Of a DNA stretch of 64,000 nucleotides, positions 45,646 through 54,393 are shown one piece after another. The notes beneath the pieces were generated by a model that did no database searches, was not told the DNA's origin, and saw only the letters and a list, made by a program, of their open reading frames with translations. The stretch is from Rhodospirillaceae bacterium (GTDB lineage Bacteria > Pseudomonadota > Alphaproteobacteria > MPNO01 > UBA2964), in contig PAPV01000004.1 of assembly GCA_002709075.1 (NCBI GenBank), forward strand, positions 62,001 through 126,000, in the 5' to 3' direction. Position numbers and translations under genes: made by a program. Numbering within the stretch: the first letter of the stretch is position 1; every line of letters begins with the position of its first letter.

Positions 45646-46533
45646 TTATCTCTTCGATACTTGAACCAAGTCCGCCTCTCTCCGCCATATATATAACCCG
45701 CAAGACACAACGACAGCTATACCTACCAAGGTCCAATTATTTGGGAATTGATTAAAAATTACATGACCGAGAATTGCCGCAAAAATTACTTGGGAATAAA
45801 GAAACGGCGAAACAACTGAAGCAGGAGCAATTTCTAAACCACGAATCAACAAATAATGACCAATTCCATACGAACCACCAAGTGCCACCATATACAGCCA
45901 ACCAAGCAAATCAGGCATGGTCCAAAAGAATGGAACGGCCAAAGATGTTACCCCAACTCCAATTGCAGATGTCCAGAATAAACTAGTATTAGCGTGATCA
46001 GTTTTAGATGCTATCCTGGTTAGAACTTGGTACAATGCATAACAAAATGCAGAGCCCAAGGGTAAAAAAACTTGCCAGATAACAGTATCCGTTCCCGGGC
46101 GAATTATGAACATTACGCCTCCAAAACCAACTACTATGGCCAACCAACGACGGAATTCAACAGTTTCTCCTAACAAGGGTATCGAAAATGCAGTTACCAA
46201 AAGAGGGGCAACAAAGACAATTGCTATTGCGTCAGCAAGTGGCAGAAATTTTAAGGCGAAAAAGAAGCATGCTGTGGCAATAAGCATCAAAAATGATCTT
46301 CCTACGTGCAACAAAGGGCGCGTCGATCTAGCCTGCGCCAAAATATTGCCGCTAGAAAGAAACAAACACGTAAAGACGAAGTGAAAAAAATATCTCGCCC
46401 AGACAATTTGGGTGGTGCCATAAGCTTCGTGCAGTAACTTTACCAACGCTTCACCCACAACAAAAAATGCCAATCCTGCGACAAACAAAACTATTCCTTT
46501 GCGACTATTTTGCTTTCGCTCTATTTGATCCAT
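45646..46533 (-). CDS. DMT superfamily transporter, EamA domain pair
   Basis: This is a 295-residue membrane protein with about ten helices and two EamA repeats. Repeat 1 contains TTQIVWARYFFHFVF, and repeat 2 contains the segment ASVVSPFLYSQVIFAAILGHVIFNQFPNNWT. The WARYFFH block differs from the FFR block of the other four DMT genes here, so it belongs to another subgroup. The substrate is unknown. It converges with the OYE gene. Confidence 0.85.
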   Translation of the reverse strand: MDQIERKQNSRKGIVLFVAGLAFFVVGEALVKLLHEAYGTTQIVWARYFFHFVFTCLFLSSGNILAQARSTRPLLHVGRSFLMLIATACFFFALKFLPLADAIAIVFVAPLLVTAFSIPLLGETVEFRRWLAIVVGFGGVMFIIRPGTDTVIWQVFLPLGSAFCYALYQVLTRIASKTDHANTSLFWTSAIGVGVTSLAVPFFWTMPDLLGWLYMVALGGSYGIGHYLLIRGLEIAPASVVSPFLYSQVIFAAILGHVIFNQFPNNWTLVGIAVVVSCGLYIWRREADLVQVSKR

Positions 46534-49032: not shown

Positions 49033-49093
49033 TGGTGCCGCTAATCTGACTTGAACAGATGACCCCATCATTACGAATAGTCTACTCCACCAA
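49033..49093 (-). pseudogene. tRNA-Thr(CGT)-like remnant, left end of element
   Basis: On the minus strand this resembles a tRNA with anticodon loop TTCGTAA. The 3' part is well kept: the T-arm ATCTG/CAGAT around a TTCAAGT loop, the acceptor strand TAGCGGC, and ACCA. The 5' part is decayed, with no usable D-arm or acceptor strand. The nine bases ATTACGAAT (49070-49078, plus strand) are shared with the intact tRNA-Thr at 49934-50009 and with the remnant at 51376-51414. It looks like one end of a tRNA-targeted insertion. Confidence 0.65.
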
Positions 49094-49135
49094 ATAAACA
49101 TTTTAAAACAGTGACTTATAAAAGCCTAAATGCCC

Positions 49136-49153
49136 ACGTAAATTATACGTAAA
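49136..49153 (+). repeat. Left paired ACGTAAA repeat, possible integrase arm site
   Basis: Two copies of ACGTAAA (49136-49142 and 49147-49153) are spaced 11 bp start to start. An 18-bp copy with 16 identical positions and the same orientation lies at 51290-51307. The spacing of about one helical turn and the position about 60 bp inside the left core fit arm-type sites. Confidence 0.6.
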
Positions 49154-49173
49154 ATAATTTTTGGGGAAAATTA

Positions 49174-49195
49174 ATGTTTGTACGAGTACAAACAT
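49174..49195. repeat. 22-bp palindrome with 2-bp centre, possible recombinase crossover or operator site
   Basis: The arms ATGTTTGTAC and GTACAAACAT are perfectly complementary over 10 bp around the central dinucleotide GA. Serine recombinases cut with a 2-bp stagger at the centre of such sites. It lies about 150 bp upstream of the serine recombinase gene. An operator function is the alternative. Confidence 0.55.
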
Positions 49196-49342
49196 AACGT
49201 CAAATCACCTAAATCGAAGCGTTATCTCAGGGTTACTGAAAATAAGTGACGAAAACTCGTTATTTTCCCTAGTCACAGACATCCGATTGAGCCAATATTC
49301 CAGGGTAAAATCTGGGATAAGTGTCTGAAAGGATTGGGAAAA

Positions 49343-49918
49343 ATGAAGGTAGCTGTCTATGTACGAGTATCTACAAATCATCAAAGTGATGAGGCTCAGT
49401 ACGAGGAATTAGAGCAACTTTGTCAGCGTTCTGATTGGGAAATTGTCTCGGTTTATAGGGAGACGATTAGTGGAACCAAAGGAACGAATGAAAGGGAACA
49501 GCTTAAAAGAATGCTCCGTGACGCTCGGCTTCGTAGGTTTGAGAAGGTTGTAGTATGGAGCGTGGATAGGCTCGGGCGTTCTATGAAGCACCTCGTTACC
49601 GTGTTGGCTGAGCTAAAAGATATCGGTGTAAATGTTTTTAGTTTCAAACAAGGAATAGATACCCAGACGCCGATGGGCGCTATGCTGTTCCAGTTTGTGG
49701 GGATATTCGCCGAGTTTGAGAATGAGATGAGGAAGGAACGTCAGGCTATTGGTATAGAAAAGGCTAAATCCAAAGGTGTCTACAAAGGTGGTAAACCCAC
49801 CCCATCAGCCAAGTTAGACGAAATAAAAAGATTACGCTCTGAGGGTGTTTCTATCTCTAAGATTTGTAAGGCTGTTAGTGTCTCACCTCACACAGTCTAC
49901 AAGGCTTTATCAGTCTAA
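49343..49918 (+). CDS. Serine recombinase, resolvase/invertase family
   Basis: This is a 191-residue site-specific recombinase. The N-terminal catalytic domain has YVRVST, with the nucleophile serine at about residue 10, then the conserved WSVDRLGRS block (active-site arginines) and the long dimerisation helix with FEFENEMRKERQ-like sequence (IFAEFENEM). A short C-terminal helix-turn-helix (SEGVSISKICKAVSVSPHTVYKAL) binds DNA. The ATG at 49343 follows AAAGGA by nine bases. An in-frame TTG at 49334 is less likely. The gene ends 15 bp from the tRNA-Thr, which is on the other strand. A 22-bp palindrome upstream may be its target. Confidence 0.93.
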   Translation: MKVAVYVRVSTNHQSDEAQYEELEQLCQRSDWEIVSVYRETISGTKGTNEREQLKRMLRDARLRRFEKVVVWSVDRLGRSMKHLVTVLAELKDIGVNVFSFKQGIDTQTPMGAMLFQFVGIFAEFENEMRKERQAIGIEKAKSKGVYKGGKPTPSAKLDEIKRLRSEGVSISKICKAVSVSPHTVYKALSV

Positions 49919-49933
49919 ACATTAGAAAAAGAG

Positions 49934-50009
49934 TGGTGCCACATCGGTGACTCGAACACCGTACCTCAGCATTACGAATGCTGCGCTCTACCGGATGAGC
50001 TAATGTGGC
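49934..50009 (-). tRNA. tRNA-Thr(CGT)
   Basis: These 76 bases on the minus strand form a full cloverleaf. The acceptor arms GCCACAT and ATGTGGC pair at all 7 positions, followed by encoded ACCA. The D-stem is GCTC/GAGC, the anticodon stem CAGCA/TGCTG, the loop TTCGTAA with anticodon CGT, and the T-stem CGGTG/CACCG. It lies between a serine recombinase and a broken tyrosine integrase. Confidence 0.95.
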
Positions 50010-50034
50010 AACACACCATCTTCCTAATCCAAAA

Positions 50035-51262
50035 TTACGATTTTATAAAGTCAAAAATCGAAGAACCGGATTGACGTTTTTGTGTCTTCGTTAGCTCGCG
50101 AGCTTGAGCCAAGGTTGATGTGTGACCGTAGTATTTCTCTATCATTTCCACGCTGTTTCCATGTTCTGAGCCAATACGTAATGGTTCACACCCTCATAAA
50201 TTCTGAAGGTCGCGTAGGTATGTCTGAGTGAGTAGAGGGTGCGACGATTACCATCTCTATCAAACTCAACATCACAATGTTTTATGAGCGAGGCGAAGCC
50301 TTTTTTGAAACTACCGATGGGCGAGCCATCGGGGTGACAAAAGATAAAACTTTCCTCCGGTGGGTTTTCTCCCAAGTCATCAACGCGCAGCTGGCGAATG
50401 CGATCTAAGTAAGTTCTTACTTCCGAGGTGCGAGCGATAACCTCTCTAACACCAGTTTTCCCATCAACTCGGAAACCTATTACTGGTTTCCCATCCTGTT
50501 CGCCGACTTAAAAATATCGCGCCATTGTAAATTACGAGCCTCCCCCACCCTAATACCTGTATTAGCGAGTATGAGAACGTAGTTCCAAAGCAATACTCTA
50601 TCTCGGCGAACCCTTGAGTGTTCAGCTTGATTTACCCAATGGCGAGCGTTCCGAGTAAGCCGTTCATAAGCTGTTCTATCAAACGCTGGGCGAGCTTTCG
50701 TTTTAAGTGGAACTTTTTTGAAATCTGGGATGGCTTTGATGTACTTCCTACTTGAAGCCCATTTTAGAAATCTTCTTATCTCTCCCCCTTCACTATTAAG
50801 TGTTGAGGAAGCTAACTTTCGCCCATAGCGTTCGGCTTTTTTGCGCTCCTCGAAATAATCCTCGATGAGTGCGGTATCAATCGCATCCATATTTTTGTTA
50901 CCGACGAAAGCGTTGAAGTGTTTCCCAATAGTGACTTGAGTATTTTCAAATCGACTATGGCTGGCTTGAGATTTGAGATATTCAGAAATTACAGTTTTAG
51001 CTTGGCGAGATTTTACGTTCTCACCCATACGATGCCGAAATTTAAGGTCATCCCTCAACTCTTTAGCAAAAGCATAAGCATCATCGCGGTTTGAGGTTCG
51101 TGCTGAACGAATAACATACCCAGCAGTTCTGGGAGCTAGGATGCGAGCTTGATAAGTGGGAACCTTATTATCGCGGCGACGATAAATGGCTATTTCACCG
51201 TCATCAAAACTCTCAAAATCTATGTATGACTGTGTCGCCGTCGCCATCGCCATAATCCACAA
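50035..51262 (-). pseudogene. Tyrosine-type integrase broken by two frameshifts
   Basis: Three frames together rebuild a phage-type integrase of about 408 residues. Part 1 (from 51262 or 51253, ending with a stop at 50480) has the SAM-like core-binding domain and box I, with the catalytic arginine in NTGIRVGEARNLQW. A single-base loss near 50508-50514 (within TTTTTAAG on the minus strand) shifts the frame. Part 2 carries the box II SLRHTYATF. A second single-base loss near 50161 shifts again into the third part, which restores MIEKYYGHTS with the nucleophile tyrosine and ends at 50035. It abuts the tRNA-Thr 5' end by 25 bp. The gene is inactive as read, unless the shifts are sequencing errors. 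Confidence 0.85.
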
Positions 51263-51289
51263 TATTCAATATGGTAGGATGATATCTCC

Positions 51290-51307
51290 ACGTAAACGAT
51301 ACGTAAA
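51290..51307 (+). repeat. Right paired ACGTAAA repeat, possible integrase arm site
   Basis: ACGTAAA occurs at 51290-51296 and 51301-51307, with the same 11-bp periodicity and orientation as the pair at 49136-49153. It lies between the integrase start and the right core at 51376, so it could also mediate autoregulation of the integrase promoter. Confidence 0.6.
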
Positions 51308-51375
51308 GCCCAATAATTAGGTAGAAAATGCTATAAAATATCGGAAAACATGGGTTTTTAAGCGAGGAGCTTACT

Positions 51376-51414
51376 ATTACGAATGTGATGCTCTACCCAC
51401 TGAGCTAAACTGGC
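51376..51414 (-). pseudogene. 5' half of a tRNA-Thr(CGT)-like gene, right end of element
   Basis: On the minus strand this starts GCCAGTT and continues TAGCTCAGTGGGTAGAGC into an anticodon loop TTCGTAA. It aligns with the 5' half of the intact tRNA-Thr over the acceptor start, D-arm and anticodon loop. The 3' half is missing beyond the ATTACGAAT core (51376-51384). This is the expected remnant at one end of an insertion in the anticodon loop. Confidence 0.65.
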
Positions 51415-52034: not shown

Positions 52035-52910
52035 TTGACTTCAATTATTCTTTTTTTAGGTAGTGGAGGCAGCGGGCACACCTTACCCAAATGCAAAGGA
52101 AGTCCAATTATGCAAGGAACTCATACATTATTTTGGACAAACTGCTATGGGGTATATAAGTTTGCGAATGGTGGAAGATATGAGGGTGATTTTCAACAAG
52201 GCAAATTTCATGGCAATGGTCTATTAGTTTTCAAGAGCGGGGGTAAGTACAGCGGAGAGTTCAAAAAGAATCATTTTGATGGCAAAGGCAATTACACATC
52301 CGCAAGTGATAACAAATATGTGGGTTATTTCAGGAAAAATAGGTTTCATGGAAATGGCACTGAAACTTGGGCTAATGGAGATAAATACTTGGGCAATTTT
52401 CACAACGGCACGGCTCACGGAGAAGGGACATATATTTGGCAAAACGGAAATAAATATGAAGGCGGATATGAAAACGGAAAATTTCATGGGAATGGCACAT
52501 TTATAATTGGAAACCGGCAGTATACTGGAAATTGGCAACAAAATATTTTAATGGGAAAAATGGGATTGAGATTCCACAAAAAAATGAAATATCACGATAC
52601 AAAAAATAAAAATTTTCATCGATGGGCGTTGGGGGAACTATTTTTTAAAGGCCTTAGAATACCAGTTGACCGTGAGAAGGGTCTAAAATGGTATCGCGTG
52701 GCAGCAGACTCAGGATATGAAAAGGCAAAAAAGACACTCAAAAATATCAGATCCCAGTTAGAGCCTAAGGCTATTGCAAAGTGTATGTTTGTTAACGTTA
52801 AAAAGATTTCGGGTCCAGAAACGAAAGAAATTGTTCTTGATTATTGCCGTAGTTTTGTGCGGCAATATTCTCTGGAACAATTAGTTCTCCAAGATAATAA
52901 CAGATCCTAG
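52035..52910 (+). CDS. MORN-repeat and Sel1-repeat protein, probably exported
   Basis: This is a protein of about 291 residues with about five MORN repeats (residues about 45-170, pattern Y-x-G-x-F-x(4)-H/F-G-x-G, for example YEGDFQQGKFHGNG). A Sel1-like repeat follows (about 205-240, LKWYRVAADSGYEKAKK), then a C-terminal region with two cysteines. MORN repeats bind lipids or scaffold proteins. The only in-frame conventional start near the 5' end is TTG 52035 without a ribosome site. Eight codons upstream, an ATC at 52011 has GAGAGGA eight bases before it and would give a proper signal peptide, so the real start may be this rare codon. Role unknown. Confidence 0.78.
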   Translation: MTSIILFLGSGGSGHTLPKCKGSPIMQGTHTLFWTNCYGVYKFANGGRYEGDFQQGKFHGNGLLVFKSGGKYSGEFKKNHFDGKGNYTSASDNKYVGYFRKNRFHGNGTETWANGDKYLGNFHNGTAHGEGTYIWQNGNKYEGGYENGKFHGNGTFIIGNRQYTGNWQQNILMGKMGLRFHKKMKYHDTKNKNFHRWALGELFFKGLRIPVDREKGLKWYRVAADSGYEKAKKTLKNIRSQLEPKAIAKCMFVNVKKISGPETKEIVLDYCRSFVRQYSLEQLVLQDNNRS

Positions 52911-53004: not shown

Positions 53005-54393
53005 CTAAGCCTCGAAAGAAGATGTGTTTTTTATCTTACTACTCTCTTCATCTACAAAATCATTTTTGAATTTTGAAATTGCGAATCGTTTTTCAACAAT
53101 CTGTGAATTTTCTTGAGTACCCCAATCAATTGTACCAAGCGCGCCGCATGAAACACAATCTGGCGAAAAAACTCCAAAATTTCTATTACATTCATTACAA
53201 TACCAACCCGGTCCAGATACTGCTTCTTCAGCGCGGCGTAGCCATTGATTAGCGGCAGCAACATCTTTTTTTTCTTGTTCTTCAAGAAGCGCAAACAGTC
53301 TGCAAACCTCGACCGTCTCTCCATCCTGCAAGCATAATTTTAATTTAGACCTTGCACTCCCCCACAATCCAGCTTCGATCATCACGTTGGCAAGAGACAG
53401 TAAAGTTTGCGTGTGGTTTGGGTTGTAGGTCCCAAGTTTTTCAAACCGCAATACTTTTTCAACCAAACTTCCCTCCGGCAAAACACGACCGTAAATTTCG
53501 GCTAGTTTGGGGTGAGGATATGTTGGCCATTTCTTCTCTATAAGTGTCGCAGCTTTTCCAGTTTTTCCTTCTTTCTCAAAAACAGCTACTTTTGCAATTA
53601 TTGCGGGCAACCAATCGGGGGCAAGCCTGTAAGCTTTATTTGTGGCAATAAAGGCCTCTTTGGTATTAATTTGAGCTACTGCATTCGATGCTGTCAAAAG
53701 TGCCAGTGCTGCCCGACGGCGTTTGACTATTTTCTTATTTATGGAATTGGCTTTCGCCATTTTTTCAAGAACAAAACCAGCAGAATGCCATTGTCGGTCC
53801 GCCACATACAAATCATAGAGAGTGTTCAGTATCCAAGCTGTTTTAGGTTGCAAGCGAAATGCGCGCTCAGCGAGTTTAATTGCCTCCGGACGGTTACCGT
53901 CACGCTCTGCTTGTATAAGAAGCCCTCGCAACCCTAAAAAAGATGTTTCTTTGCGCTCTAGCATCATCTGAAAATATTGCTTGGCGGCACCTTGATCACC
54001 GTTTAATTGGGCCGTCTGCGCAGACAGAAGCAAAGTTAATGGGGGGTCATCCAACAGTACACCGGTCCGCCTCACTTGCCGCTGCGCCTCTTTTGAGTCG
54101 CCCGCTGCTACAGCAACCATTCCACGTGTTAGAGCCCGGTACCCCCTTTTTACTCGTGCTTTTTTGTGCAGGTCAATAATAGTCGATGGAGTTGAGACCA
54201 ATCCGCGCCAGACGCGATAAAAAAGCACTGAAATCAATGCGAATATCACAAACATAGTCAGTAAAAGAGCCGCAGAAGAAATCATTCGCCAGTTTTGCCA
54301 TTCAATAACAACTTGGCCCTCTATATTTGCAACCTGAATTGAAACGAAGACGAATATCCCCGCAACAAGAAAAAATCTAAGCATTTTAATCAT
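53005..54393 (-). CDS. hemY: HemY-like membrane protein with TPR domain
   Basis: This is a 462-residue protein with two N-terminal membrane helices (about residues 5-22 and 38-62) and a cytoplasmic helical TPR region (about 90-400). A C-terminal zinc ribbon (WYCNEC, then CVSCG, about 405-430) is typical of the alphaproteobacterial form. HemY of the hemCDXY group is not protoporphyrinogen oxidase. It is a membrane TPR protein linked to heme synthesis by gene order only. It overlaps hemX by 4 bp and ends the four-gene heme cluster. Confidence 0.88.
   Translation of the reverse strand: MIKMLRFFLVAGIFVFVSIQVANIEGQVVIEWQNWRMISSAALLLTMFVIFALISVLFYRVWRGLVSTPSTIIDLHKKARVKRGYRALTRGMVAVAAGDSKEAQRQVRRTGVLLDDPPLTLLLSAQTAQLNGDQGAAKQYFQMMLERKETSFLGLRGLLIQAERDGNRPEAIKLAERAFRLQPKTAWILNTLYDLYVADRQWHSAGFVLEKMAKANSINKKIVKRRRAALALLTASNAVAQINTKEAFIATNKAYRLAPDWLPAIIAKVAVFEKEGKTGKAATLIEKKWPTYPHPKLAEIYGRVLPEGSLVEKVLRFEKLGTYNPNHTQTLLSLANVMIEAGLWGSARSKLKLCLQDGETVEVCRLFALLEEQEKKDVAAANQWLRRAEEAVSGPGWYCNECNRNFGVFSPDCVSCGALGTIDWGTQENSQIVEKRFAISKFKNDFVDEESSKIKNTSSFEA

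What the first reader, a model, noticed from the sequence alone, without database searches (positions are those of the whole stretch)
49070..51384. Minimal integrative element that may carry its own intact tRNA-Thr
Seen: three tRNA-Thr(CGT)-like sequences on one strand share ATTACGAAT at the anticodon loop (49070, 49971, 51376). The left one keeps mainly its 3' half, the right one only its 5' half, and the middle one is intact. Between the outer two lie a serine recombinase and a tyrosine integrase, and nothing else but the tRNA. Known: tyrosine integrases often use anticodon loops as crossover sites. Inference: one 2.3-kb element split a tRNA-Thr gene and supplies a complete replacement internally instead of restoring one end. 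Alternatively two small elements inserted in tandem. A recombinase pair with a tRNA as the only cargo would be an unusual architecture.
Basis: partly seen in the sequence, partly recalled or inferred. Interest (0 to 1): 0.68.

Follow-up and report, generated by a model that had tools for sequence, protein, structure and literature searches.

The report
Tiny element swaps host threonine tRNA
A 2.3-kb piece of mobile DNA cut this bacterium's only tRNA-Thr(CGT) gene in half and brought a complete foreign copy with it, so the cell now appears to rely on the invader's tRNA; the trick is known from a few phages, but here it is reduced to two recombinase genes and one tRNA.

Summary
Window 51376-51414 is the 5' half, and 49033-49078 the 3' half, of the native tRNA-Thr(CGT). 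In the four same-family genomes that could be compared over both flanks, a single intact copy sits just downstream of hemY at the same syntenic position. The intact middle tRNA (49934-50009) is the genome's only tRNA-Thr(CGT) found. It differs from the native gene in both halves and its own stems pair perfectly, so it arrived whole. One element rather than two is favoured: paired, 11-bp-spaced ACGTAAA repeats (candidate integrase arm sites) occur in the 64-kb window only at the two outer ends, and the outer junctions join into a dyad-symmetric attP. The crossover lies in the anticodon loop with a 9-bp core. The tyrosine integrase is broken by two frameshifts, so the element is probably immobile; the serine recombinase is intact. 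Related integrases show the same split-plus-whole-tRNA layout completely in two other genomes and partly in others. The mechanism matches tRNA-dependent lysogeny of mycobacteriophages (PMC10865867). New here is a non-phage, near-minimal, apparently captured version. Some related elements carry a group I intron in the replacement tRNA's anticodon loop, possibly hiding it from the integrase.

The parts
51376..51414 (-). Native tRNA-Thr(CGT) 5' half, cut at the anticodon loop
   Evidence: 32-34 of 39 identical to tRNA-Thr(CGT) of relatives; best match to the 5' consensus in 64 kb; lies downstream of hemY as in relatives
49033..49078 (-). Native tRNA-Thr(CGT) 3' half, decayed, CCA end kept
   Evidence: 34-37 of 45 identical to relatives' 3' halves
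49070..49078 (-). 9-bp att core ATTCGTAAT (3'-half junction)
   Evidence: identical at 51376-51384
51376..51384 (-). 9-bp att core ATTCGTAAT (5'-half junction)
   Evidence: joined element ends give GGAGtagACTATTCGTAATAGTaagCTCC, 7/10 dyad positions beyond the core; 200 of 20000 shuffles reach this
49934..50009 (-). Intact replacement tRNA-Thr(CGT) carried by the element
   Evidence: ARAGORN, Rfam RF00005 63.9 bits; acceptor stem 7/7 only with its own 3' half; nearest tRNA-Thr(CGT) in other families, 84%
49343..49918 (+). Small serine recombinase (resolvase/invertase type), intact reading frame (TTG start at 49334 also possible)
   Evidence: PF00239 3.3e-41 plus HTH_7; phrog_125 DNA invertase 2.1e-58
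50035..51262 (-). Tyrosine integrase, pseudogene with two frameshifts (near 50480-50513 and 50145-50193)
   Evidence: six-frame reading; PF00589 3.2e-08 on read-through; R233, K265, R343 and Y375 invariant in alignment A1
51288..51307 (-). Candidate arm-type site pair, two TTTACGT repeats 11 bp apart
   Evidence: 18/20 identical to 49134-49153; 0 of 2000 shuffles; the spaced pair occurs only at these two places in 64 kb
49134..49153 (-). Candidate arm-type site pair at the other end
53005..54393 (-). hemY-like gene, right syntenic flank (anchor of the empty-site comparison)
   Evidence: 34 of 41 genomes searched have it; tRNA-Thr(CGT) lies nearby in most
45646..46533 (-). EamA-type transporter gene, left syntenic flank
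   Evidence: 57-61% identical and in the same order in G004-G007

Best explanation
A single small integrative element, about 2.3 kb between the cores at 49070-49078 and 51376-51384. Its tyrosine integrase recombined a circular attP with the anticodon loop of the native tRNA-Thr(CGT) downstream of hemY. AttP and attB share only the 9-bp core ATTCGTAAT, so neither junction rebuilds a tRNA. The cell survives because the element carries a complete tRNA-Thr(CGT) of foreign type next to the integrase. Later the integrase gained two frameshifts and the native halves lost pairing, so the element is now probably fixed and the host has in effect exchanged its tRNA-Thr(CGT) gene. Shown by sequence: the split, the syntenic empty site, the foreign whole tRNA, the absence of another detectable tRNA-Thr(CGT), paired repeats at both ends, and the frameshifts. 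Inferred: the circular intermediate, arm-site function, expression and need of the carried tRNA, and fixation. The serine recombinase role is unresolved; the best guess is an accessory resolvase or invertase.
For: Empty site: G004-G007 carry one intact tRNA-Thr(CGT) between the same left genes (UbiD, NADH oxidoreductase, EamA and others) and hemY. Own genome: only the middle tRNA-Thr(CGT) is intact; the other Thr tRNAs found read TGT and GGT. Native halves match the order's tRNA better than the middle one does. Middle acceptor stem 7/7 within itself, 4-5/7 with native halves. Paired repeats at the outer ends only. The same 11-bp repeat spacing recurs in G237 and G403 with different motifs. Same layout for tRNA-Arg(CCT) in G403 (9.4 kb) and G237 (16.4 kb), where native halves still pair 7/7. 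L173: native tRNA-Thr(CGT) 5' half, integrase (42%), whole intron-bearing tRNA-Thr(CGT). Serine recombinase relatives lie near related integrases in G237, L175, L217, L180 and L117.
Against: The two native halves no longer pair well (acceptor 4/7), so their unity rests on similarity to relatives and synteny rather than complementarity. The same-genus genome G001 has a rearranged locus (intact tRNA and degenerate 3' half, both inverted relative to hemY), so the insertion history within the genus is unclear. No excision or circular form was observed. No close copy of the element was found, so the boundaries are inferred.
Confidence: 0.86

Rival explanations
1. Two small elements in tandem. An integrase-only element (1.4 kb) supplied a new 5' half, and a serine-recombinase element (0.9 kb) supplied a new 3' half, so the middle tRNA is a chimera of two attP halves.
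For: Related integrases do use one-half restoration: 31 loci have an intact tRNA directly upstream of the integrase, L101 and L110 keep a displaced 3' half, and L180 and L247 keep a displaced 5' half. L174 would fit a 1.4-kb integrase-only element as well.
Against: Paired arm-type repeats lie at the outer ends and not beside the middle tRNA, which starts less than 40 bp from the integrase stop. Acceptor and anticodon stems of the middle tRNA pair perfectly at positions where it differs from native. G403 and G237 show that three-piece elements exist. Serine recombinases are not known to use tRNA anticodon loops (own knowledge).
Confidence: 0.1
2. The outer pieces are ordinary tRNA pseudogenes from local duplication and decay, with recombinases inserted nearby by chance.
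For: The left remnant has weak tRNA-like sequence on its 5' side too (GGTGGAG), and G001 has a similar degenerate copy.
Against: Break at the anticodon loop on both sides, complementary halves, short identical cores, arm-type repeats inside both ends and the same pattern in other genomes.
Confidence: 0.04

Closest known systems
tRNA-dependent lysogeny (mycobacteriophages Fionnbharth, LeBron, Gaia; PMC10865867; Lj965 cited there)
   Same: Tyrosine integrase, attB in a host tRNA gene, short core (8-17 bp there, 9 bp here), host tRNA not rebuilt, same-isotype tRNA carried, paired arm-type sites around the core
   Different: Here no phage genes, 2.3 kb, a serine recombinase, decayed integrase; need for the carried tRNA not tested
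Sinorhizobium meliloti phage-related sequences that replace an inactivated tRNA gene (PMC11476347)
   Same: Native tRNA inactivated and replaced by an isoacceptor gene more like that of unrelated Alphaproteobacteria
   Different: Phage-related elements of 3.2-89 kb; anatomy of the att site not compared here
Classical tRNA-targeting genomic islands that rebuild the tRNA from one half (anticodon-loop crossover)
   Same: Same integrase family; crossover at the anticodon loop; related integrases mostly follow this mode (31 loci)
   Different: Here neither junction gives a whole tRNA
Tycheposons (as described in PMC10872708)
   Same: Tyrosine recombinase and a tRNA
   Different: Those are described as 4-200 kb cargo carriers with a tRNA at the border; here no cargo and the tRNA is internal

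Membership tests
tRNA-dependent lysogeny | Tyrosine integrase encoded by the element | tested here: met
   PF00589 3.2e-08 on read-through; homologous to intact integrases at 32-42%; now frameshifted
tRNA-dependent lysogeny | attB overlaps a host tRNA gene; attP/attB core too short to rebuild it | tested here: met
   9-bp core, both junctions without a whole tRNA
[quoted passage not shown]
   tRNA-Thr(CGT) 49934-50009, sole copy found in the genome
tRNA-dependent lysogeny | Element is a temperate phage | tested here: not met
   Only two recombinase genes and a tRNA between the cores; no match of the integrase in the phage collection, four mostly weak viral contigs
tRNA-dependent lysogeny | Carried tRNA required for recovery of integrants | not testable with these tools
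   Needs experiment
Half-restoring tRNA genomic island | One junction carries an intact tRNA made of host and element halves | tested here: not met
Tycheposon | Large cargo (4-200 kb) with a tRNA at the border | tested here: not met
   2.3 kb, internal tRNA; definition taken from PMC10872708

The most novel reading that the evidence does not exclude
Non-phage elements of Alpha- and Betaproteobacteria form a class that splits and replaces host tRNAs, and several hide their replacement tRNA from their own integrase with a self-splicing group I intron placed at the anticodon-loop crossover site. This window shows an intron-less, decayed end state, in which the host has been left with the alien tRNA.
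Probability: 0.35. Interest if true: 0.72.

Novelty: new variant of a known kind. Interest (0 to 1): 0.52.

Why it matters
It carries tRNA-dependent integration, described in actinobacterial phages in 2024, to a near-minimal non-phage element, and shows how a mobile element can permanently exchange a host tRNA gene. Related elements suggest the strategy recurs for tRNA-Thr, tRNA-Arg, tRNA-Leu and a CAT-anticodon tRNA. The group I introns found in some of the carried tRNAs suggest a testable reason why such introns sit in anticodon loops.

Tried and rejected
Single-protein scans of genome contigs and viral contigs with the integrase found nothing; an alignment query was needed. Most of the 27 genomes searched in the order hold no close integrase relative. 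Origin of the carried tRNA from the own tRNA-Thr(TGT) was rejected: that gene is GCCGGC...ATCTGATTTGTAATCAG, unlike the element's. Tycheposon membership rejected. Rfam at gathering threshold missed the G237 intron; relaxed searches gave E about 1e-9. The promoter/terminator scan gave no more sites than shuffles. ARAGORN on the joined native halves gives a 76-base tRNA shape but with a shifted anticodon, because the halves have decayed. L174 fits either model and is not counted as proof.

Full report
What is there. The three ATTACGAAT sites are real. On the minus strand the order is: native tRNA-Thr(CGT) 5' half (51414-51376), integrase (51262-50035), intact tRNA-Thr(CGT) (50009-49934), serine recombinase on the opposite strand (49343-49918), native 3' half (49078-49033). 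ARAGORN and Rfam see only the middle tRNA as intact. A sliding comparison over 64 kb and both strands puts the outer pieces clearly above background (25/30 against 20/30 for the 5' half; 27/37 against 21/37 for the 3' half).

Empty site. In this order the tRNA-Thr(CGT) gene usually sits just downstream of the hemY-like gene. In four genomes of the same family (G004-G007) the left-flank genes of the window (thiolase, UbiD, NADH oxidoreductase, EamA and others, as far as the fetched stretches reach), a single intact tRNA-Thr(CGT), and hemY/mitofilin occur in the same order, without the serine recombinase and without a close integrase relative at that place. The insertion is therefore a real difference between this genome and its relatives.

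Foreign whole tRNA. The 5' remnant matches relatives' 5' halves at 32-34 of 39, the 3' remnant at 34-37 of 45; the middle tRNA matches the remnants less well in both halves (30/39 and 32/45). It resembles tRNA-Thr(CGT) of other families best (84%, against 76-79% in the own family). Its acceptor stem pairs 7/7 with itself but only 4-5/7 with the native halves. It is the only tRNA-Thr(CGT) found in the 99.9%-complete genome; the other Thr tRNAs found have TGT and GGT anticodons.

One element, not two. Two TTTACGT repeats 11 bp apart occur at 51288-51307 and 49134-49153, and this spaced pair occurs nowhere else in the 64-kb window; none of 2000 shuffles gave such a match. These look like integrase arm-type sites. 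The element ends, joined, give GGAGtagACTATTCGTAATAGTaagCTCC, a dyad around the anticodon loop (7 of 10 positions beyond the core; 1% of shuffles). Both facts tie the outer cores to one attP. The G237 and G403 elements have end repeats of other sequence with the same 11-bp spacing.

State of the genes. The integrase has two frameshifts while R233, K265, R343 and Y375 remain. The serine recombinase frame is open and matches the resolvase/invertase class. No further gene is evident.

Relatives. The integrase family occurs in bacterial chromosomes (343 matching stretches in genome contigs), with no match in the phage collection and only four viral contigs. Of the loci classified, 31 have an intact tRNA directly upstream of the integrase, the classical arrangement (the script lists 32, of which L218 is set apart because a native 5' half precedes its tRNA; some loci are the same record fetched twice). 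The split-plus-whole layout is complete in G403 (5' half, whole tRNA-Arg(CCT), integrase, 3' half over 9.4 kb) and G237 (16.4 kb, serine recombinase abutting the integrase, whole tRNA-Arg(CCT) with intron); in both the native halves pair 7/7. L173 has the native tRNA-Thr(CGT) 5' half, integrase and a whole tRNA-Thr(CGT) with intron, then the contig ends. L218, L233 and L240 show a 5' half plus a separate whole tRNA; L174 is ambiguous. Serine recombinase relatives are near related integrases in G237, L117, L175 (62%), L217 (62%) and L180.

Introns. In G237, L173, L233 and L240 the whole carried tRNA is interrupted in the anticodon loop. G237 and L173 match the Rfam group I intron family at E about 1e-9, below the curated cut-off; L233 and L240 show the same core signature. 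That is 4 of 8 split-type loci (L174 counted) and none of 31 classical ones, although the two Polynucleobacter loci are not independent. A possible reason is that the intron removes the integrase target from the element's own tRNA gene. This is inference; no paper in the library held the terms together.

Known system. Guerrero-Bustamante and Hatfull 2024 (PMC10865867) define tRNA-dependent lysogeny by a tyrosine integrase, a core of about 10 bp, no tRNA reconstruction, and a phage tRNA of the same isotype. The window element meets each structural point but is not a phage, and dependence was not tested. PMC11476347 reports tRNA replacement by phage-related sequences in Sinorhizobium. I therefore call it a new variant that works like tRNA-dependent lysogeny.

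Limits. Native halves have decayed. G001, the only same-genus genome, has an inverted and rearranged locus with a 41-bp stretch like the element's integrase/tRNA spacer (33/41), so the insertion may be older than the species, or repeated. Circularisation, expression and need of the tRNA, and the serine recombinase role are untested.

Noticed in passing
L140:17962-18350 (G237), L173:11229-11516, L233:16100-16394, L240:15381-15669: Whole tRNAs interrupted by group I introns in the anticodon loop, inside or beside integrase loci that also hold a split native tRNA half.
   Followed up: partly
L044:17693-19050 (G001, same genus): Downstream of hemY a degenerate tRNA 3' half and an intact tRNA-Thr(CGT), both inverted relative to hemY; 41 bp beside the tRNA resemble the window element's integrase/tRNA spacer.
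   Followed up: partly
L262:7848-8650 (G001:C39): A decayed integrase relative (46% in its C-terminal part, several stops) lies directly upstream of tRNA-Thr(TGT), near tRNA-Tyr, tRNA-Gly and an EF-Tu gene.
   Followed up: no
window 52035-52910: A MORN-repeat-like gene on the + strand sits between hemY and the tRNA site, where G004-G007 have only about 200-300 bp.
   Followed up: no
window 49172-49189: Palindrome GTTTGTACGAGTACAAAC upstream of the serine recombinase, a possible binding or recombination site.
   Followed up: no
L244:4477-19094: Polynucleobacter locus with a tRNA-Phe 5' half, an integrase relative, an intact tRNA-Phe and a 3' half, possibly tandem half-restoring elements.
   Followed up: no
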